The translations under genes and the position numbers were made by a program. Below are positions 16,910 to 64,000 of a DNA stretch of 64,000 nucleotides, piece after piece (positions within the stretch are counted from its first letter, which is position 1; every line of letters starts with the position of its first letter). This DNA comes from Peptoanaerobacter stomatis (GTDB lineage: Bacteria > Bacillota > Clostridia > Peptostreptococcales > Filifactoraceae), in contig NZ_JH815225.1 in the NCBI RefSeq assembly GCF_000238095.2, forward strand, positions 770,724 through 834,723. The letters run 5' to 3'. The notes under the pieces are model-generated. The model worked only from the letters and a program-made list of their open reading frames with translations, was not told the origin of the DNA and did no database searches.

Positions 16910-19309
16910 TTAAAAATCTCCGTTAACATTCCATATTTCTTTTGCGTATCTCTTAATAGTTTCATCTGATGAGAATATTCCTGCATTTGCTGTATTTATT
17001 ATAGACATTTTATTCCATTTTTTCCTGTCTTTGTACATACATCTAAGTTTCGCAGATGCTTCTTTATATGAATGGAAATCTTTCAATACATAATATCTGT
17101 CATTTTCTTTCAACAGTGAATCATATAAATCTATGCCGTCATAACCGAGCTTAGGTAAAAATCCGTTTACAAGAGAATCTACTACCATTTTTATATCTTG
17201 ATCATTTTGATATATATCAGACGCATTATAATTATGATTTGATTGATAATCAAGCACTTCTTCTTTATTAAGACCGAATATCATAATATTATCATCGCCT
17301 ACCTGATCTTTTATCTCAATATTTGCACCGTCAAGTGTAGCCAATGTTATCGCTCCGTTAAGCATAAATTTCATATTTGATGTACCTGATGCTTCTTTTG
17401 TTGCTGTAGATATTTGTTCACTTATATTTGTAGCAGGTATTATACGTTCTGCCAAAGATACATTATAATTCGGTATCAAATATATTTTTATTCTGCCTTT
17501 TACTCTCGGATCCGTATTTATATGATATGCCAAAGAATTTATAAATTTAATAACTTTCTTTGCCCTGTAATATGAAGATGCGGCTTTACCTCCGAATATA
17601 AAAGTAACAGGTTGCATTTTATAATCAGGTTCTCTTAATATTTTATGATAAAGATATAATATGTGAAGTGCATTTAAAAACTGTCTCTTATACTCATGAA
17701 ATCTTTTTATTTGAACATCATAAATAGATTTAGGATCTATATCAAAATCATATCTTTGTTTCATATAATTAGAGAAATTTTCTTTATTTATATTTTTTAC
17801 TCTCTCTATTTTGTCAAGCATTGTAGAATCGTCTTTATAATCATTGAGTTTTGCTAATTCAAGAGGATTTTTTCTCCATTCTTTGCCTATTGTTTCATCT
17901 ATCAAACTGCTCAATGTAGGATTGCAAGATTCTATCCATCTTCTGTATGATATACCGTTAGTCTTATTGTTAAACCTGTCAGGGAATAAGAAATTTAGAT
18001 CCTTCATAACTTCTGTTTTTAACAAGTCTGTATGAAGCTTTGCAACCCCATTTGTAGAATGTGACATTATTACTGATAGGTTCGCCATTCTTACATAACC
18101 GTCTCTTATTATTGAAGTATTTCTTAATTGCTCTTCTGTCAAACTGCTTGAATATTTATCATTAAATCTTCTATCCAGTTCTTCCAATATCATATATATT
18201 CTTGGAAGCAGATTTTTCAAGAAATGCGCCGGCCATTTTTCAAGCGCTTCTTGCATTATTGTATGATTTGTATAACTCATAGTAGCTCTTGTAATCTCTA
18301 TTGCTTCTTCCCATTCAAGATGCTCTTCATCAAGCAATATTCTTATAAGCTCAGGTATACAAAGTGCAGGATGAGTATCATTTATATGAACTGCAACTTT
18401 GTTTGGAAATTCAGATATAGAAAGCTTTAATTTTTTAAAATCTTTCATTATACTTTGTAATCCTGCTGATACAAAGAAATATTCCTGTTTTAATCTCAAC
18501 AGTTTACCTTCATCTGTAGAATCATCAGGATAAAGAACATTAGTTATCTTTTGTATCTCTATTTTTTTCGCTTCCAATTTTGAATATTCTACTGAATTTA
18601 ATTCACTATCTTCCAAGATTAACTCTGCTGACCAAAGCCTAAGAGTATTTATAGTCTTATCATCGTTTCCTATTATAGGCATATCATACGGTACTGCATG
18701 AATTATTTCATATCCTTCGTGTATAGGTTTTAAATTGGCATCCATTCTGACAGTTCCGCCAAATTTAACTACTTCTTTTCTATTTTCTTTTCTTATTTCC
18801 CACGGATTTTTGTTTCTAAGCCAATCATCAGGCCACTCTACTTGATTGCCGTCGCTAAATCTCTGCTCAAACATACCGTAATTATATCTTATACCATTTC
18901 CATTACCAGGTATTCCAAGACAGGCACAAGAATCCATAAAACACGCTGCAAGACGACCAAGACCTCCATTTCCAAGTCCAGGTTCTCTTTCAGACTCTAA
19001 TATATCTTCAAGTTTAAATCCAAAATCTTTTAATACATCTGTTACATCTTCAAGCATTCCAGTTTTTAAAAGTGTTTCTTTCAAAAGACGACCTATCATA
19101 AACTCCATTGAAAAATAATACACTTGTTTTTCAAGATTATCTCTCACTTTATCTTTACATTTTATCCAATCCCCAGATATATAATATCTTATGGTTTTAG
19201 CAAGAGATTGATATATTTCTCCTGTTGAAACTGTGTCTATAGACTGTGAATAATCTTTTTGAATTTGTTCTGCTAAATCTTTTTTGAATTGTTCCTTATC
19301 GATTTGCAT
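16910..19309 (-). CDS. glgP: glycogen/maltodextrin phosphorylase
   Basis: This PLP enzyme releases glucose 1-phosphate from alpha-1,4-glucans. Of the family signatures, GNGGLGRLAACFMDS, the KRFHEYKRQ segment, YNVSLAERIIPATNISEQIS and EASGTSNMKFMLNGA are all visible; the last holds the PLP-binding lysine. The open frame reaches 19369, but the ATG at 19309 (MQIDKEQF) directly follows a GGGGAGGG ribosome binding site that lies inside the longer frame, so a 799-residue protein is the better call; that is the usual length. It is followed by a terminator, then by the GH13 glycosidase. Confidence 0.95.
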   Translation of the reverse strand: MQIDKEQFKKDLAEQIQKDYSQSIDTVSTGEIYQSLAKTIRYYISGDWIKCKDKVRDNLEKQVYYFSMEFMIGRLLKETLLKTGMLEDVTDVLKDFGFKLEDILESEREPGLGNGGLGRLAACFMDSCACLGIPGNGNGIRYNYGMFEQRFSDGNQVEWPDDWLRNKNPWEIRKENRKEVVKFGGTVRMDANLKPIHEGYEIIHAVPYDMPIIGNDDKTINTLRLWSAELILEDSELNSVEYSKLEAKKIEIQKITNVLYPDDSTDEGKLLRLKQEYFFVSAGLQSIMKDFKKLKLSISEFPNKVAVHINDTHPALCIPELIRILLDEEHLEWEEAIEITRATMSYTNHTIMQEALEKWPAHFLKNLLPRIYMILEELDRRFNDKYSSSLTEEQLRNTSIIRDGYVRMANLSVIMSHSTNGVAKLHTDLLKTEVMKDLNFLFPDRFNNKTNGISYRRWIESCNPTLSSLIDETIGKEWRKNPLELAKLNDYKDDSTMLDKIERVKNINKENFSNYMKQRYDFDIDPKSIYDVQIKRFHEYKRQFLNALHILYLYHKILREPDYKMQPVTFIFGGKAASSYYRAKKVIKFINSLAYHINTDPRVKGRIKIYLIPNYNVSLAERIIPATNISEQISTATKEASGTSNMKFMLNGAITLATLDGANIEIKDQVGDDNIMIFGLNKEEVLDYQSNHNYNASDIYQNDQDIKMVVDSLVNGFLPKLGYDGIDLYDSLLKENDRYYVLKDFHSYKEASAKLRCMYKDRKKWNKMSIINTANAGIFSSDETIKRYAKEIWNVNGDF

Positions 19310-57501: not shown

Positions 57502-58584
57502 TTATTCTTCAACACTTTTAAAACTGTTAATTGATTCATTTTGAAAAATCTTTACAGCCATCCAAACAATCCCTATTGACAAAACAATATGTCCAATACC
57601 TGAAAGTCCTTCAAGAGCAGCTTTAATTACTATATCTTTTCCTTCACTAACTACATCATAAATTCCAAATAGAGTCATATTCACCATGGTAAATGTAAAT
57701 CCAGATATAAACACATATATAGGCTTCTTAAGAGATAATATTCTCTTAACATCATATTCTTTAGATACTATATAAATAATCATCATTAATAAAAATCCAA
57801 GGATTAAAATATGCACATGAAGTTTTAAAAGATGATTTTTTGCTTGATAGTCATAGAATTTTGTGAATTCTCTGTAAAAAACGCCACCTATTAATCCCAT
57901 AACTAAGAATGTATAGGATAAGCCTAATATGTTTTCCTTTTCAAATCTACTAATAAAATGTCTATATCCCAAAACAACTATCATTAAATATGCCATAGTT
58001 TTTGGCATCATAAAAGCACCTACTATAGGATATTTATCCGCCCAAAGTACAACAGGAATATAAAATGCAAAGCTCAGCAAAATATATAAGCTCATATTTT
58101 TCAGCCCCGATTTTTCCTTTTCCTTGTAAGACCAATAAATCAACAAACCTCCAATCAGTGCAAAAGGAATGTTTCTATATATCCCAAACATATAATTTTC
58201 ATTAGCAGTGCCCCAGTTATTTTGAGGAAGAAGAGTTAAAATAATTCTTATCAATGCCAAAGCATATATTATATTTCTTTTAGATGCACTATAATCCTTA
58301 CTCTGACTTCTATAATAGTAGTAGAACAAAACATAAAAAATTGTCATCGTTATACTTGTTATGAATTTTCCCCATGAAAGTGCGAATACGTTAGCCTCAA
58401 AACCTCCATAGCTCAAATGCGATATAACTCTTGGTAGTAAGTGAAACGAATCTCCTAAACCCAAAATTATAGCCATAACTCCAAAAAGCTTAGCTTCCTT
58501 AGATTTCTCCAAAAACAGTCTCACACCCAATGATAAAACTATGCTTAAATATGTAATATCAAATATACTTTCAACAATTGCCAT
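57502..58584 (-). CDS. multi-pass membrane protein with C-terminal DUF2871-like domain
   Basis: A 360-residue membrane protein with about ten membrane segments. The C-terminal ~145 residues (GGVFYREFTKFYDYQAKNHL through GIGHIVLSIGIVWMAVKIF) match DUF2871 proteins, including the histidine-containing KLHVHILILGF segment. The N-terminal ~210 residues form a separate six-helix unit with HLLPRVISHL and conserved tryptophans. It overlaps the end of the TetR gene by 14 bases, so it is the second gene of that repressor's operon. A transport or lipid-related role is possible but not shown. It is a likely target of the TetR protein. Confidence 0.72.
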   Translation of the reverse strand: MAIVESIFDITYLSIVLSLGVRLFLEKSKEAKLFGVMAIILGLGDSFHLLPRVISHLSYGGFEANVFALSWGKFITSITMTIFYVLFYYYYRSQSKDYSASKRNIIYALALIRIILTLLPQNNWGTANENYMFGIYRNIPFALIGGLLIYWSYKEKEKSGLKNMSLYILLSFAFYIPVVLWADKYPIVGAFMMPKTMAYLMIVVLGYRHFISRFEKENILGLSYTFLVMGLIGGVFYREFTKFYDYQAKNHLLKLHVHILILGFLLMMIIYIVSKEYDVKRILSLKKPIYVFISGFTFTMVNMTLFGIYDVVSEGKDIVIKAALEGLSGIGHIVLSIGIVWMAVKIFQNESINSFKSVEE

Positions 58585-59143
58585 AAATTACTCCTTTCTC
58601 AATCCAATTCAAATGTTTAATATATTTTTCTATAAACTGCTCCTTATTCCAACTTTCTCTAAATAATCTCTCTATAAGACTATGAACAATAGATTTTATA
58701 AAATGTATTTTCTCTAAATCCATACTCATATCCTGAAACAATTCTTCCTGATGTTTATGAGATGACTCCCAACTTCTGTTTAAATCCTCATTCCAATATA
58801 AATATCTGTTCTTATAAATCATATAGGCGTTTTCGTCAAATATTATATCTGCTATTTCTTTACCATATTCAACTAAAGCTTCTGTCAGATTTTTATCTTT
58901 TAGTAAAAATATCTTCATGAATAAGCCATGGATATCAACGGTTTCCTTTTCAAGAATAGTAAAATAAGCATCTTCCAAATTTTCAAAATACTGATAAAAA
59001 CTACCTCTTGCTATCTCTGCTTTCTCAACTATTTCTTTGACATTTACCTTTTGAAATGGTTTGGCTTTGAACTCCTCTTTAAGTACAAAAATTATTTTCT
59101 CCCTCTTCTCATCACTTAGATTAAAAAAAACTTCTTTTGGCAT
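58571..59143 (-). CDS. TetR family transcriptional repressor
   Basis: A 190-residue TetR-type repressor. The N-terminal HTH (KPFQKVNVKEIVEKAEIARGSFYQYFENLEDAYFTIL, roughly residues 33-68) is typical; the C-terminal ligand domain is diverged. It is first in an operon with the membrane protein gene, and its start lies just after AAGGAGGG. A near-perfect promoter at 59180-59208 and two 13-bp operators overlap its control region, so autorepression is very likely. The inducing ligand is unknown. Confidence 0.93.
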   Translation of the reverse strand: MPKEVFFNLSDEKREKIIFVLKEEFKAKPFQKVNVKEIVEKAEIARGSFYQYFENLEDAYFTILEKETVDIHGLFMKIFLLKDKNLTEALVEYGKEIADIIFDENAYMIYKNRYLYWNEDLNRSWESSHKHQEELFQDMSMDLEKIHFIKSIVHSLIERLFRESWNKEQFIEKYIKHLNWIEKGVIYGNC

Positions 59144-59534: not shown

Positions 59535-60491
59535 TTAACGTAATAATCCAAATTGTTCTGTATCTATCCATTCCATCGAAAGAATAGACCAAAAATCTTC
59601 TGCAAGACCATCCAATACATAGTCATATGGAATCCATCCATAACCATCTTGCCCCCAAGTGCTTCCCCATGAATTTCGTATCATGATGGCTCCTTTTGTT
59701 TTCTCATTACTGCTTGTATTAATAATAACTTTATTGTCATCATAACCCACTGCCATAACGGCATGTCCCCATTCTGCCTGTTCATTTTTACAAGGGTAAG
59801 GAATCGAACCAGGAGCATCTGAACTCTCAAAAGATGGGAATCCGAAGAAACCAAATGCAGACGGAATTCCTGCTGCTAAATATGTCTTTACGTTTCTTAA
59901 AACATCTTTTTTCGATGTTTTTTTACCAAGCGGATCATGACAGAAATAGTTAATAGCAGAGTAGTGATTTGCAAGAGAGTACAGGAAAGCATCTGGTTCA
60001 CTGTCCCAATCCGGATTTACAGTTTCTCCATCAAATGTGTACGGAAAATATTTTTCATCAGGTACTCCAAACAATACGAGAGCGCCCATCGCCGAACGAA
60101 GCCAAGCTCCTGAATCTCCAGTTGAAAGCATTAGTTTCCTTGTTGCTTTATACACAAATAATCTTGAACCTTCAATATGTCTTCCATATGCTCTTTTTTG
60201 AAAATATTCCACCATTCCAACAACAGCATTTGCTGTACAAGAACCCAAACTAAGCTGGTCTTCCACATGTGAACACCATTTTCTAAGATCTACACGACTT
60301 GGAAGTTTGTTTTCGATTTTTGTTTTGTCCGATCCTTTGATGCCAAGTTTCATAGAAATCTCAGATATAACAGGATGTTCATTTGAATAGTCTCTCATAT
60401 CAGGAAGAGGAGGTAACCAGCCTGTTGTAAGCGGTTCGCCAGCTTTATCTCCCTTCATAAACCTTCTTTGTCTATAAAATACCTTAATCAT
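59535..60491 (-). CDS. papain-like cysteine protease (C1 family), intracellular
   Basis: A 318-residue cysteine protease of the papain clan. The catalytic set is intact: Gln79 and Cys85 in DQLSLGSCTANAVV, His243 in EWGHAVMAVGYDD, and Asn273 in IRNSWGSTWGQDGYGW. There is no signal peptide or membrane segment, so it should act in the cytosol. The N-terminal ~60 residues (WLPPLPDMRDYS and so on) resemble the short pro-like start of bacterial C1 peptidases. It begins 15 bases after the trypsin-nuclease gene, with an AAAGGAGGG site, so the two form an operon. Base composition is less AT-rich than the surrounding genes. Confidence 0.9.
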   Translation of the reverse strand: MIKVFYRQRRFMKGDKAGEPLTTGWLPPLPDMRDYSNEHPVISEISMKLGIKGSDKTKIENKLPSRVDLRKWCSHVEDQLSLGSCTANAVVGMVEYFQKRAYGRHIEGSRLFVYKATRKLMLSTGDSGAWLRSAMGALVLFGVPDEKYFPYTFDGETVNPDWDSEPDAFLYSLANHYSAINYFCHDPLGKKTSKKDVLRNVKTYLAAGIPSAFGFFGFPSFESSDAPGSIPYPCKNEQAEWGHAVMAVGYDDNKVIINTSSNEKTKGAIMIRNSWGSTWGQDGYGWIPYDYVLDGLAEDFWSILSMEWIDTEQFGLLR

Positions 60492-60506
60492 ATGATACCC
60501 TCCTTT

Positions 60507-62279
60507 TTACAACTTGATATGTTCTGGTGCTCCAATTACCATGCCTGCTGATTCAATGTTTGCAATCGGATCATATTGTGATAGTTCACCAAAGTCCAAG
60601 CCTGTAATTTCTTCTATGCGAGCAACCGGAACTTGATATGTTTTGTATTCTCCATATGCAAATTCGAGGTTTTCAATCATATTTTTCTGAGTTTGAAGGT
60701 AAGCAGTAGCAGACATTTTTCCATCGTCCTTAATCATGACTGCAACTTTCCAAAATTCTGCCGGTATCTTGAATTTCCCACGGTAAATCATGTCATCACT
60801 TCTAAATACAGGACCGGTGAAAACAGAAACCTTCAGATTGTGATTTTGTGCATTTTTTAAAATATAATTTTCTAAATCGAGCCAAATCTTTTGATTTAAG
60901 TTTTTGTGCTGAGGTGAGCTGTTTGTAAAATGAAAAGTATCATTATTTGCCTGAATAGCCTTATCTCCCCAAACAGGATCCAATCTCCTTACCAAGTGAC
61001 CACGATCTAAATCATTTTTGGCGTATAGCTCATCTCCATACTGGGCATCTGTAGGAATCCTTGGATCAAAGTTCCAACTATCTCCACTCCTTTTTATATT
61101 TTTAGCTTGATTTCCATCTATATTTACAGCTGTAAAATAAGCAAGGCAACGTGAACGACACATCACAATTGAAAAATGCGTATAATCCAAAACATAGCTA
61201 CCATTATCCATGCAAGAGACATCTTTCTTCATCTCATCAGAAAGCCTCGGAAGGTCAACTTTATACTCTGAGCCAAGAAAAGTACTGTCATATCCCACAT
61301 CTATTTTGGAAGGAATGGGATTAGAAGGATTAGGCTCACCACAAATATCCAAGTTTGGAAAAATTTCCCCAATGAACATCTTTTCTTCTGCCGTGAAATT
61401 ATTGTATTTCTTTGCAAAATAATTTGAAATGGAACTGATGCGAATTCCCTCATTTGCAATCCATGCGTTCTTTTTATTAGGGTTAGGCACTCCTGAGTGA
61501 TGAAGAGCTACAACAATCCATTGATCATTGAATACCGGTGAACCTGAAGAGCCAGGCTCAGTATCTGTTAGGTAGTGGATGAAGTCATCTAAAATAGAGC
61601 TTACTTTATTTTCCCTAATAGTGACTGCCTTTGGTCCTCCGTTTGGATGTTGAATGATAGAAACATATTCTCCTTCAAGAATTTTTCCCTCTTCAGCAAC
61701 GAGATGAAGATGTCCAAAATCTTTAGGCTGTTTATCGCTTGAAGGATTATCTTTAAGTGCAACCAGAGTAAAATCAAGCTCCTCATCCGTAACAAAAAAC
61801 TGTTCAGGATTTAGACGAAAAGTATATGTAGGACAAGGCATGAAGTTTACATCATCTTGATAATTAAACTCGGCAATAGAATTTAGAGCAGTCCTCATAC
61901 TATCAATAACATGATTATTTGTCATCAGTACATTTTCCGAAACCAAAAATCCTGTTCCGGAGCCAATAAAACTTCCCTTATCATCACGAATCTGAATGCG
62001 ACAAATAGAATTTCCTGAATTGGTTCCCATCTGTAAGTATGAAATCGGGAAGAGATCACTTTTCCCCATGATACGCTCCATAGCAATCGAATCATAATCA
62101 TTAAGCAACTTTCTTCTTGATTTCAGAGTATTATCTTTAATATCAATTTTTTCAAGATTAGAATTCCTTTTGGAATCGTTTTCAACGAAACGTTTCAAAG
62201 CCTGCTCCTGAATTTGATCCTGTCTTGCTTCAAATCTTTCTTTAGAAATTTCCTTTTGTTCGATAATACCTCGCAACAT
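60507..62279 (-). CDS. trypsin-like protease fused to DNA/RNA non-specific endonuclease
   Basis: A fusion protein of 590 residues (numbers below count from the upstream ATG at 62297). Residues ~90-300 are a trypsin-like domain with His129 (MTNNHVID), Asp175 (ELDFTLVAL) and Ser251 (EPGSSGSPVF). Residues ~365-580 are a NUC1-type non-specific nuclease with DRGH (431-434, catalytic His434) and the metal-site segment NSSPQHKNLNQKIW with Asn468. The first ~75 residues are charged and coiled-coil-like; no signal peptide is seen. The ATG at 62279 is preferred because AAAGGAG lies inside the longer frame. A papain-like protease gene follows in the same operon. Confidence 0.88.
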   Translation of the reverse strand: MLRGIIEQKEISKERFEARQDQIQEQALKRFVENDSKRNSNLEKIDIKDNTLKSRRKLLNDYDSIAMERIMGKSDLFPISYLQMGTNSGNSICRIQIRDDKGSFIGSGTGFLVSENVLMTNNHVIDSMRTALNSIAEFNYQDDVNFMPCPTYTFRLNPEQFFVTDEELDFTLVALKDNPSSDKQPKDFGHLHLVAEEGKILEGEYVSIIQHPNGGPKAVTIRENKVSSILDDFIHYLTDTEPGSSGSPVFNDQWIVVALHHSGVPNPNKKNAWIANEGIRISSISNYFAKKYNNFTAEEKMFIGEIFPNLDICGEPNPSNPIPSKIDVGYDSTFLGSEYKVDLPRLSDEMKKDVSCMDNGSYVLDYTHFSIVMCRSRCLAYFTAVNIDGNQAKNIKRSGDSWNFDPRIPTDAQYGDELYAKNDLDRGHLVRRLDPVWGDKAIQANNDTFHFTNSSPQHKNLNQKIWLDLENYILKNAQNHNLKVSVFTGPVFRSDDMIYRGKFKIPAEFWKVAVMIKDDGKMSATAYLQTQKNMIENLEFAYGEYKTYQVPVARIEEITGLDFGELSQYDPIANIESAGMVIGAPEHIKL

Positions 62280-62552
62280 AAAGATCACTCCTTTCATTTA
62301 TAAACATTATTAAAAGATAAAACAAAGTTTTAATAATTGAAATAACAGCTATATTTCACAGTTTTAACAACTCATATTGTCATATCGCATAAATATTATA
62401 AATTTTATAGAAATGAAACCTAAACTTTTAATAAAAACATATTATATTATACTACATAATACTACATAATTTCCTTTATTACAATAAATTCCACATTTTT
62501 TCAATAAAATTATTTGCTCTTCTCAATAAATTGAGCAAGAAATTCCATGAAT

Positions 62553-62801
62553 TTAAAGAGAATCTGATAAAGATACCAATGAAAAATATGCTCCTATGCT
62601 ATTAGCAATTAAATAAACTTTATTATATTTAGGAATGATTGAATTAAAATAATTACTAAACTCTATTATTGTATCCCAAGGCTTTTCTGATTTATAATCA
62701 AATCCAATTATTTCAAAACTGTCATCCAAAAATTCCCTATAGCGATTTTATTCTTCTGCGGTACCATCCTTACCATGAACATATATAACAACATTTTTCA
62801 T
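62553..62801 (-). pseudogene. decayed alpha/beta hydrolase gene
   Basis: A frame starting MKNVVIYVHGKDGTAEE is broken by an in-frame TAA at 62748-62750. It then continues as NRYREFLDDSFEIIGFDYKSE, later YLIANSIGAYFSLVSLSD, and ends at a stop at 62553. The HGKxG start and the ANSIGAYFS nucleophile elbow are those of small alpha/beta hydrolases annotated in Firmicutes. About half the normal length remains and the last part of the enzyme, with the catalytic acid and histidine, is absent. A ribosome binding site (GAGGT) is still visible. Confidence 0.72.
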
Positions 62802-63190: not shown

Positions 63191-64000
63191 TTATTCTATT
63201 CTGTTTATCTTATCAAGTATATACTCAATCCATAGTTTGTTCTCAATAGTCCTCTGACCATCTACATTGCAAACTGTTATATTATCTGTTTTTTCGATTA
63301 TAAGCCGTTCTACGATTTCTTCTTCTGAGGTATTCCTACCTACTATTATTACTTTTTTGTCATCATCATTAACCAATGTTCTAATGATGCCGTTAATGTG
63401 CTCATCATCTTTATTAAATCCGAAGCCTACTATAACAATATAGTCAGCTTCTTTCCAATCTCTATATAAATCTACATATTCACAAGATTTGAAAATAGAA
63501 GTCATAGGTTTTGTTCCACTTTGAGTAAACAGTAACGGAACAATAAATCTGCCACCCAAATTCTCTTTTGTATCTATTTTATTTAAATATGGATCATACC
63601 ACTGAGCCACAGAACCGTTTAAATAGGTAATGTCTTCCTTAAGTTTTTCTATAATTATCTTATTATAATTTGTTGTCGCAATCTTAGCGACTTCTATCCT
63701 CGATTTTTCAATGCTATCCTTCAAATCATCATAGTATCCTATATTAGTTATATTCAACAGAAGATTCTGCTCTATATAATTTTTGACAGTCAACAAAAAT
63801 ATAGATATCTTACAAAACTTTGCCCACTCATTTTTAGGACAATACAAATAATGCCAATTAGAATCAATTAAAGATTTATAATCTAATACCGATGAAAAAA
63901 TATCTTCTAGTATATACTTCGCAAAATATACTATTTTTGACTGATCATCTAAAGACTCCATATTTGCACTTTTAAAATTATCATATAAATACTCTACCCC
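63191..64000 (-). CDS. SIR2-like domain protein, C-terminal part (partial)
   Basis: The last ~269 codons of a gene that continues past the right edge: the frame is open through 64000, and the ATG at 63961 has no ribosome binding site. The visible part has SIR2-like segments, TTNYNKIIIEKL, YLNGSVAQWYDPYL, FIVPLLFTQSGTKPM and ADYIVIVGFGFNKDDEHINGIIRTL, in the arrangement of the long prokaryotic SIR2 proteins used in NAD-depleting defence systems rather than of protein deacetylases: no zinc cysteines are seen. The N-terminal NAD-binding part is outside the window, so activity cannot be judged. Confidence 0.75.
   Translation of the reverse strand, partial: GVEYLYDNFKSANMESLDDQSKIVYFAKYILEDIFSSVLDYKSLIDSNWHYLYCPKNEWAKFCKISIFLLTVKNYIEQNLLLNITNIGYYDDLKDSIEKSRIEVAKIATTNYNKIIIEKLKEDITYLNGSVAQWYDPYLNKIDTKENLGGRFIVPLLFTQSGTKPMTSIFKSCEYVDLYRDWKEADYIVIVGFGFNKDDEHINGIIRTLVNDDDKKVIIVGRNTSEEEIVERLIIEKTDNITVCNVDGQRTIENKLWIEYILDKINRIE

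What the first reader, a model, noticed from the sequence alone, without database searches (positions are those of the whole stretch)
59535..62279. Operon of a trypsin-nuclease fusion and a papain-like protease
Seen: one protein joins an intact trypsin triad (His129, Asp175, Ser251) to an intact DRGH non-specific nuclease (His434, Asn468). The next gene, 15 bases on, is an intact papain-like protease (Cys85, His243, Asn273). None has a signal peptide. Base composition differs from the core genes and the neighbours are a SIR2 protein and a decayed hydrolase. Inference: a cytosolic system in which proteolysis, by either protease, frees or activates the nuclease to destroy nucleic acid on infection or stress.
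Basis: partly seen in the sequence, partly recalled or inferred. Interest (0 to 1): 0.8.

Follow-up and report, generated by a model that had tools for sequence, protein, structure and literature searches.

The report
Protease-nuclease fusion paired with papain-like protease
A Firmicutes bacterium related to Filifactor carries a two-gene unit: a protein joining a trypsin-like protease to a DNA/RNA-cutting enzyme, and a second, papain-like protease; the fusion belongs to an already predicted bacterial self-destruct system, but the papain-like partner beside it seems new.

Summary
In detail: both genes are intact, on the minus strand, 15 bp apart, with every named catalytic residue in place. The fusion is not new as a kind. 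It has the "NucA-trypsin" architecture predicted as a conflict system by Kaur et al. 2020 (System 3), and that of Caulobacter LypC, whose protease residue, but not its nuclease residues, is needed for programmed lysis (2026 paper). Such fusions are widespread in bacteria and Methanosarcina; catalytic residues are kept in 80-81 of 81 examined.

The part not found in print is the partner. In 7 of 81 fusions, all in one clade (Firmicutes, including Streptococcus henryi), a xylellain-type papain-like peptidase follows 12-18 bp downstream; two members of the clade lack it. Elsewhere it is unlinked, and evidence for co-occurrence is weak. Six of the 7 paired loci sit beside housekeeping genes; only the window's adjoins a type III restriction island. 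Proteolytic release of the nuclease is unproven: the linker is flexible, but the window's linker shows no widely shared site. The protease fold matches FAM111A best, a protease switched on by dimerisation. Verdict: new variant of a known kind.

The parts
60507..62279 (-). trypsin-NucA fusion gene (590 aa; alternative upstream ATG at 62297 gives 596 aa)
62007..62279 (-). N-terminal helical extension, residues 1-91, incl. helix 79-89 in the stretch that aligns with the N-terminal helix of FAM111A
61368..62006 (-). trypsin/V8-like protease domain, residues 92-304 (H123, D169, S245)
61296..61367 (-). linker, residues 305-328 (pLDDT under 50 at 314-324)
60510..61295 (-). EndoG/NucA-like non-specific nuclease domain, residues 329-590 (DRGH 425-428, N462)
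59535..60491 (-). papain-like (C1A, xylellain-type) peptidase gene, 318 aa (Q79, C85, H243, N273)
62553..62801 (-). decayed alpha/beta-hydrolase-like remnant upstream (not part of the unit; fold judged by eye)
63191..64000 (-). SIR2-like protein by weak matches (continues beyond the window; 494 aa in L018), next to the restriction genes

Best explanation
The fusion is a LypC-like 'NucA-trypsin' executor: a cytosolic protease-nuclease kept silent in normal growth and switched on by stress, infection or an element's life cycle, to digest the cell's own (and any invader's) proteins and nucleic acids, ending in growth arrest or lysis. Most likely switch (inferred): self-association through the N-terminal helix orders the protease active site, as in FAM111A; the active protease then cuts cell targets and possibly its own exposed linker or the downstream peptidase. 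The nuclease works tethered or released. The papain-like peptidase is a second protease recruited into this module in one Firmicutes-centred clade; it either amplifies the cascade or widens the damage. Shown here: architecture, intact residues, operon linkage, one-clade distribution, predicted disordered linker, fold match. Inferred: silent state, trigger, order of cleavage, cell-death outcome, function of the peptidase.
For: Architecture equals Kaur System 3 and LypC, whose protease Ser is essential for lysis and whose operon is toxic when overproduced. Catalytic residues kept in 80-81 of 81. No secretion signal evident (no predictor). Best PADLOC models for residues 61-293 are RT-Protease_XI, 9e-12. 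AF2 model with mean pLDDT 84 and a low-confidence linker. Best fold match is the FAM111A protease, Z 21.9 over 212 residues, a dimerisation-dependent protease with roles in replication and antiviral defence; the family profile also finds it at 2e-7, though no stretch passes alone. C1 directly downstream in 7 of 81 fusions, gaps 12-18 bp, all in one starred set of 9 rows; distances of the two proteins correlate (62 of 5040 permutations as high). A second peptidase also lies near the fusion elsewhere: a subtilisin-family gene, opposite strand, 0.4-2.1 kb away, in 8 of 8 rows of the Psychrobacillus/Sporosarcina clade; S8 partners are named for System 3. In Methanosarcina the C1 gene is near a chagasin-type cysteine-protease inhibitor in 3 of 5 loci read (Pfam for two), as expected for a protease held in check.
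Against: No NLR/STAND or CARD gene was recognised beside the window's pair (no dedicated model used). Six of 7 paired loci are in housekeeping contexts. No shared linker site. LypC nuclease residues were dispensable. No I42 inhibitor in the window's genome. C1 absent from the genomes of Parvimonas and Tessaracoccus (same clade) and of the Bacilli searched other than S. henryi. Co-occurrence when unlinked is weak: phylum sample without own genome 1/1 vs 0/396 (p 0.0025, 50% identity cut set after seeing the data); Methanosarcina 5/12 vs 2/18 (p 0.068); Sporomusaceae counting nuclease-only genes 3/4 vs 0/6 (p 0.033), but one of the six has a C1 cut by the end of the held DNA, and counting true fusions only it is 1/2 against 2/8. 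A Cupriavidus fusion lies within type II secretion genes. No experiment on this pair was found.
Confidence: 0.5

Rival explanations
1. Gated pro-nuclease: the trypsin domain or the papain-like peptidase cuts the fusion at the linker (or at loops over the active site) and this frees the nuclease, whose action on nucleic acid is the whole point, as in HamM/Avs1 and Canu systems.
For: Working precedent with a different nuclease fold; linker predicted disordered; Kaur et al. propose a proteolytic cascade for NucA-trypsin; nuclease residues kept in 81 of 81.
Against: No residue of the window's linker is shared by 57 or more of 81 fusions (linkers align poorly). A loosely defined aromatic motif beside the nuclease is in 51 of 70 other fusions but 0 of 9 of this clade (2 of 81 unparsed). 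Nuclease residues of LypC are dispensable for lysis.
Confidence: 0.25
2. Housekeeping or salvage role: a cytosolic clean-up enzyme pair that recycles damaged protein and nucleic acid or helps post-mortem autolysis, with no tie to phage defence.
For: Housekeeping neighbours in 6 of 7 paired loci; in the clustering of 77 fusion loci no same-strand neighbour family is shared beyond small groups of relatives apart from the C1 gene.
Against: Patchy distribution: 5 of 297 genomes of the order, 0 of the 2 other genomes searched of the genus; plasmid carriage (240 records match, 37 over at least 80% of the query); placement of Streptococcus henryi among Clostridia-type sequences; an uncontrolled cytosolic protease-nuclease would be expected to be toxic (inference).
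Confidence: 0.15
3. Effector or toxin that is exported or delivered into other cells, or cargo of a mobile element, with the papain-like gene a second effector.
For: Plasmid carriage; neighbours such as phospholipase D, patatin, S1/P1 nuclease or metalloproteases in 5 of 11 annotated plasmid fusion loci read (without such, of which 13 has a C40 peptidase and 83 a serine protease further off); a type II secretion cluster around the Cupriavidus fusion.
Against: No evident signal peptide or delivery domain in the window's proteins and no small gene between them; no viral-contig relative and no phage record covering 80% of the fusion (13 partial matches).
Confidence: 0.08
4. The two genes share an operon without sharing a function; the papain-like peptidase is an independent passenger (this can hold together with the other readings).
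For: 74 of 81 fusions lack it next door, the nearest relative (Parvimonas) lacks it, it occurs without the fusion in other genomes, and co-occurrence when unlinked is weak.
Against: Constant order and spacing in 7 genomes at 58-80% fusion identity and correlated distances.
Confidence: 0.25

Closest known systems
NucA-trypsin conflict system ('System 3') of Kaur et al. 2020, PMC7159879 (section 32 read; passages)
   Same: Endonuclease_NS plus trypsin-like domain in one protein, further peptidase nearby, predicted proteolytic cascade.
   Different: Described mostly from alphaproteobacteria and multicellular bacteria, with trypsin paralogues, subtilisin, EAD1, STAND/Death-like partners; here Firmicutes, none of these recognised beside the pair, and a separate C1 peptidase gene as partner.
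LypC of LypABC, Caulobacter crescentus (PMC13236601; section 9 and passages read)
   Same: N-terminal trypsin-like domain, flexible linker, C-terminal endonuclease; the distance of 34 residues between H471 and N505 equals that between H428 and N462 here.
   Different: LypA (CARD-trypsin-ATPase) and LypB (NLR-like) were not recognised beside the window's pair; no papain partner is mentioned in the parts read. The sequences were not aligned (LypC not on hand).
Nuclease-protease pairs in Hachiman/AVAST/Lamassu/DRT and Canu (Tuck et al. 2025, PMC12799240; Results read)
   Same: Trypsin-like protease linked to a nuclease in cytosolic immunity.
   Different: There the nuclease is MBL-fold, on its own gene, with gating loops; the protease is fused to HamA, Avs1 or LmuA.
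FAM111A serine protease domain (PMC10920703; abstract and passages)
   Same: Best fold match of the protease domain with its preceding helix (Z 21.9); V8 and HtrA chains follow at Z 19-20.
   Different: Human replication and antiviral protease with no nuclease domain in its scheme; 24% identity; dimerisation of the bacterial protein untested.
Xylellain (PDB 3ois), C1A peptidase (the name is recalled; the entry is titled cysteine protease)
   Same: Closest solved relative of the papain-like partner, E 6.5e-29.
   Different: I recall no paired nuclease for it; not tested.

Membership tests
Kaur System 3 (NucA-trypsin) | NucA/Endonuclease_NS domain and trypsin-like peptidase, fused or in one operon | tested here: met
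   against the definition
Kaur System 3 (NucA-trypsin) | additional peptidase coupled to the nuclease | tested here: met
   C1 gene 15 bp downstream, though of another family than the S8/trypsin named
Kaur System 3 (NucA-trypsin) | EAD1 or STAND/Death-like partners in the operon (stated for a subset only, not core) | tested here: inconclusive
   none recognised in the window or L018; no EAD1 or Death-like model was run
Kaur System 3 (NucA-trypsin) | cell death or defence activity | not testable with these tools
   needs experiment
LypABC / CARD-NLR | N-terminal trypsin-like domain, linker, C-terminal endonuclease (LypC layout) | tested here: met
   same domain order and His-Asn spacing; no direct alignment with LypC
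LypABC / CARD-NLR | LypA (CARD-trypsin-ATPase) and LypB (NLR-like) in the operon | tested here: not met
   the two genes on either side are a C1 peptidase and, beyond a remnant, a SIR2-like gene; the rest of the genome was not searched for them
MBL nuclease-protease pairs (Hachiman/AVAST/Canu) | MBL-fold pro-nuclease | tested here: not met
   nuclease is Endonuclease_NS with EndoG/NucA fold
MBL nuclease-protease pairs (Hachiman/AVAST/Canu) | conserved cleavage residues in gating loops | tested here: inconclusive
   no widely shared residue in the window's linker; nuclease loops not analysed
C1A peptidase, xylellain type | Gln-Cys-His-Asn active site and closest solved relative 3ois | tested here: met
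FAM111A-like dimerisation-activated protease | activity that depends on dimerisation through the first helix | not testable with these tools
   helix 79-89 is modelled and conserved (Y81 63, L82 63, G85 73 of 74); chain 339-598 aligned with model 72-304

The most novel reading that the evidence does not exclude
A two-protease, one-nuclease suicide unit in Firmicutes: a FAM111A-like protease fused to an EndoG-like nuclease is switched on by dimerisation instead of by an NLR, and a papain-like peptidase replaces LypA as the upstream or amplifying protease. This would be a compact, sensor-less relative of LypABC that joins bacterial forms of three hydrolase types known from animal cells (a FAM111-type protease, EndoG, a cathepsin-type peptidase), with chagasin-type inhibitors as the brake in archaea.
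Probability: 0.2. Interest if true: 0.75.

Novelty: new variant of a known kind. Interest (0 to 1): 0.5.

Why it matters
The fusion family is large and spans bacteria and archaea, yet in the papers found only one protein of this architecture (LypC) has been tested, and there the nuclease proved dispensable for lysis. The paired clade offers a two-gene version without recognised NLR or CARD parts beside it, so the questions 'what switches the protease on' and 'what is the nuclease for' could be asked directly. The FAM111A fold match gives a concrete, testable activation model.

Tried and rejected
Rejected: membership in MBL nuclease-protease systems (wrong nuclease family). Rejected: C1 as a general partner of the fusion. 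Not decided: foreign origin. The pair's GC and GC3 stand out in the window, but its GC varies roughly with the host in 7 genomes.

The odds of the passenger reading were raised from 0.2 to 0.25 for the last point.

Led nowhere: the AlphaFold model of the C1 peptidase with 6 sequences was poor (pLDDT 40.6), so a self-blocking N-terminus could not be judged. The viral-contig scan found no relative; phage records gave 13 partial matches, none covering 80%. An empty-site comparison failed because the neighbouring DUF2871 gene is in 1 of 3 genomes of the genus, the own one. The viral structure library gave generic trypsin and nuclease matches among the 50 rows shown. An I42 inhibitor was sought in the own genome and not found. 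The pair as such was not found by the paper searches, which cover only the open-licence library. LypC could not be aligned because its sequence was not on hand.

Of these 80, 4 (L085, L088, L090, L098) gave no joined ORF in my simple ORF caller and are not among the 81 fusions (76 loci + window, L007, L011, L012, L016). That caller also misses some annotated genes (the C1 gene of L009), so the C1 search was repeated on the DNA of the 80 fusion loci other than the window: the same 6 were found. clusters the neighbours of 77 sources, the window counted twice (as window and L018); 13 of 90 sources were left out because the fusion motif was not found, 4 of them C1-only loci. The tree left out L077 and L081 (truncated), 79 rows; long branches L011 and L012 are unsafely placed. 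Alignment A3 left out L058, L077 and L081, 74 rows. One search covered 50 of the 80 loci's genomes. Linker lengths were measured in 55 of 81. One search printed 20 of 74 linkers.
Full report
Observation. Pfam finds Trypsin_2 and Endonuclease_NS in the first and Peptidase_C1 in the second. All named catalytic residues are present. The genome (2.33 Mb, 3 contigs) has one Endonuclease_NS match, this gene. The nearest solved structures by sequence are SplE/V8 proteases and Anabaena NucA for the fusion and 3ois (xylellain, name recalled) for the C1 peptidase. No secretion signal is evident, without a predictor.

Family of the fusion. The 80 come from Bacillota, Actinomycetota, Chloroflexota, Planctomycetota, Pseudomonadota, Poribacteria, Bathyarchaeota and methanogens, among others. 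240 plasmid records also match, 37 of them over at least 80% of the query. In 81 fusions the protease His is kept in 80 (one is truncated) and the protease Asp and Ser, the nuclease His and the Asn in 81. In the window's order 5 of 297 genomes have it, own included.

The papain-like partner. It lies directly downstream in 7 of the 81 fusions: the window, G003 (L016), a Filifactor alocis MAG, two Peptostreptococcaceae MAGs, a Tissierellia MAG and Streptococcus henryi, with gaps of 12-18 bp. For 5 of the other loci under 1 kb is held downstream. All 7 fall in one starred set of 9 rows together with Parvimonas and Tessaracoccus, which lack the peptidase in their genomes; Parvimonas is the sister row of the window, so a loss or repeated gains must be assumed. 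Q79, C85, H243 and N273 are kept in all 7. Distances of the two proteins are correlated (Spearman 0.48; 62 of 5040 permutations as high), consistent with inheritance as a unit. Elsewhere the peptidase is unlinked. In 50 fusion-bearing genomes searched (of 80), 9 have it at 50% identity or more (5 linked, 4 unlinked) and one has a fragment. In 398 genomes of the phylum, fusion and peptidase at 50% or more both occur in the same two genomes, one of them the window's. In Methanosarcina (30 genomes): fusion 12, intact peptidase 7, both 5. In Sporomusaceae (10 genomes): true fusions in 2, nuclease alone in 2 more; intact peptidase in 3, one fragment, one cut by the end of the held DNA. One-sided p: 0.0025 (phylum without own genome), 0.068, and for Sporomusaceae 0.033 with nuclease-only genes counted, which the cut case weakens; with true fusions only it is 1 of 2 against 2 of 8. 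These are small, uncorrected, chosen after the fact and ignore relatedness; I count them as hints only. The Bacilli searched, S. henryi apart, have the fusion without the peptidase.

Context. Upstream of the window's pair lie type III restriction and methylation genes, an HKD/Snf2 helicase and a SIR2-like gene by weak matches. The other six paired loci adjoin rpsL/rpsG/fusA, serS (two loci), the ATP synthase operon, rpsO and, in G003, pyruvate formate-lyase and ABC-transporter genes (gene names as I recognise them in the sequences). Of 77 neighbour ORFs there, 72 were scanned: PADLOC matches at 1e-10 are mad3, mad8, AriA, WYL, Cas3c, ATPase-Toprim and dGTPase models, the last a strong one in L022. 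In 11 annotated plasmid loci with the fusion, 5 have phospholipase D, patatin, S1/P1 nuclease, CHAT or metalloprotease genes nearby, and one lies within type II secretion genes. In 8 of 8 Psychrobacillus/Sporosarcina loci a subtilisin-family gene lies 0.4-2.1 kb away on the other strand; this may be a partner or plain synteny of relatives. In Methanosarcina the C1 gene has, in 3 of 5 loci read, a chagasin-type inhibitor nearby, and in several an M28-type peptidase (Pfam for one M28 and two inhibitors).

Structure. An AlphaFold2 model from 74 sequences (pLDDT 84) shows N-terminal helices, a chymotrypsin-fold protease, a low-confidence linker (pLDDT under 50 at 314-324) and a nuclease domain with less confident loops. 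The best PDB match by Foldseek and by VIA-align is the FAM111A protease domain (Z 21.9, rmsd 2.7, 212 residues, 24% identity), though V8 and HtrA chains follow at Z 19-20; the family profile finds FAM111A at 2e-7, after V8/Spl proteases and with no stretch passing alone. FAM111A is activated by dimerisation through the N-terminal helix of its protease domain; the aligned range includes helix 79-89 here, which is conserved in the family. That the bacterial protein dimerises is inference. No residue of the window's linker is shared by 57 or more of 81 fusions; a loosely defined aromatic motif next to the nuclease, in 51 of 70 other fusions, is missing in 9 of 9 of this clade.

What is known. Kaur et al. 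2020 described this coupling as System 3 and proposed a proteolytic cascade that deploys the nuclease. Banks et al. 2026 tested LypC: protease Ser essential, nuclease residues dispensable for lysis. Tuck et al. 2025 showed protease-activated nucleases, but with MBL nucleases. A papain-like partner in an operon with such a fusion was not found in the searches made.

Verdict. Real and intact; a new variant of a known kind. Most likely a regulated self-destruct module (0.5) whose main working part may be the protease, with the nuclease-release model at 0.25. Defence is plausible but not supported by the neighbourhood in most of the paired genomes, and whether the papain-like gene works with the fusion remains open.

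Noticed in passing
L018:6915-17363 (own genome, overlapping the window from 63191): A weakly SIR2-like protein, type III restriction enzyme, type III methyltransferase, a 230-aa unknown and an HKD/Snf2 helicase, with a relaxase-like ORF (by eye) further on (18011-18979).
   Followed up: partly
L027, L029, L033, L036, L038, L041, L042, L048: Psychrobacillus/Sporosarcina fusions all have a subtilisin-family gene on the opposite strand 0.4-2.1 kb away (182 residues matched in L027); L028 has a distant one 3.3 kb away.
   Followed up: partly
L185, L188, L189 (Methanosarcina genomes): Papain-like peptidase near a chagasin-type (I42) inhibitor and an M28-type peptidase; in L185 also an M43 peptidase and an exo/endonuclease-phosphatase. 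L186 and L187 show no such inhibitor.
   Followed up: partly
L200:6989-9115: Cupriavidus plasmid fusion inserted between type II secretion genes (gspF and gspG), a possible sign of export.
   Followed up: no
L007:4638-5954: Paenibacillus plasmid: a 438-aa protein with a weak, below-cutoff match to peptidyl-arginine deiminase sits 16 bp upstream of the fusion.
   Followed up: no
L011:4990-8922, L199:6998-11218: Rhizobial fusions in a row with an S1/P1 nuclease and a further 350-370-aa unknown protein.
   Followed up: no
G773, G775 (L206-L208): Sporomusaceae genomes carry the nuclease domain alone (311-381-aa frames, 62-64% identity) instead of the fusion, yet also have the papain-like peptidase.
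   Followed up: partly
L009:2543-6756, L010:3729-6756: Rhizobial C1 peptidases of the same broad family stand beside LanM lanthipeptide synthetases.
   Followed up: no
window 57502-59143: TetR-type regulator and a DUF2871 membrane protein downstream; the DUF2871 gene is not found in the two other genomes searched of the genus.
   Followed up: partly
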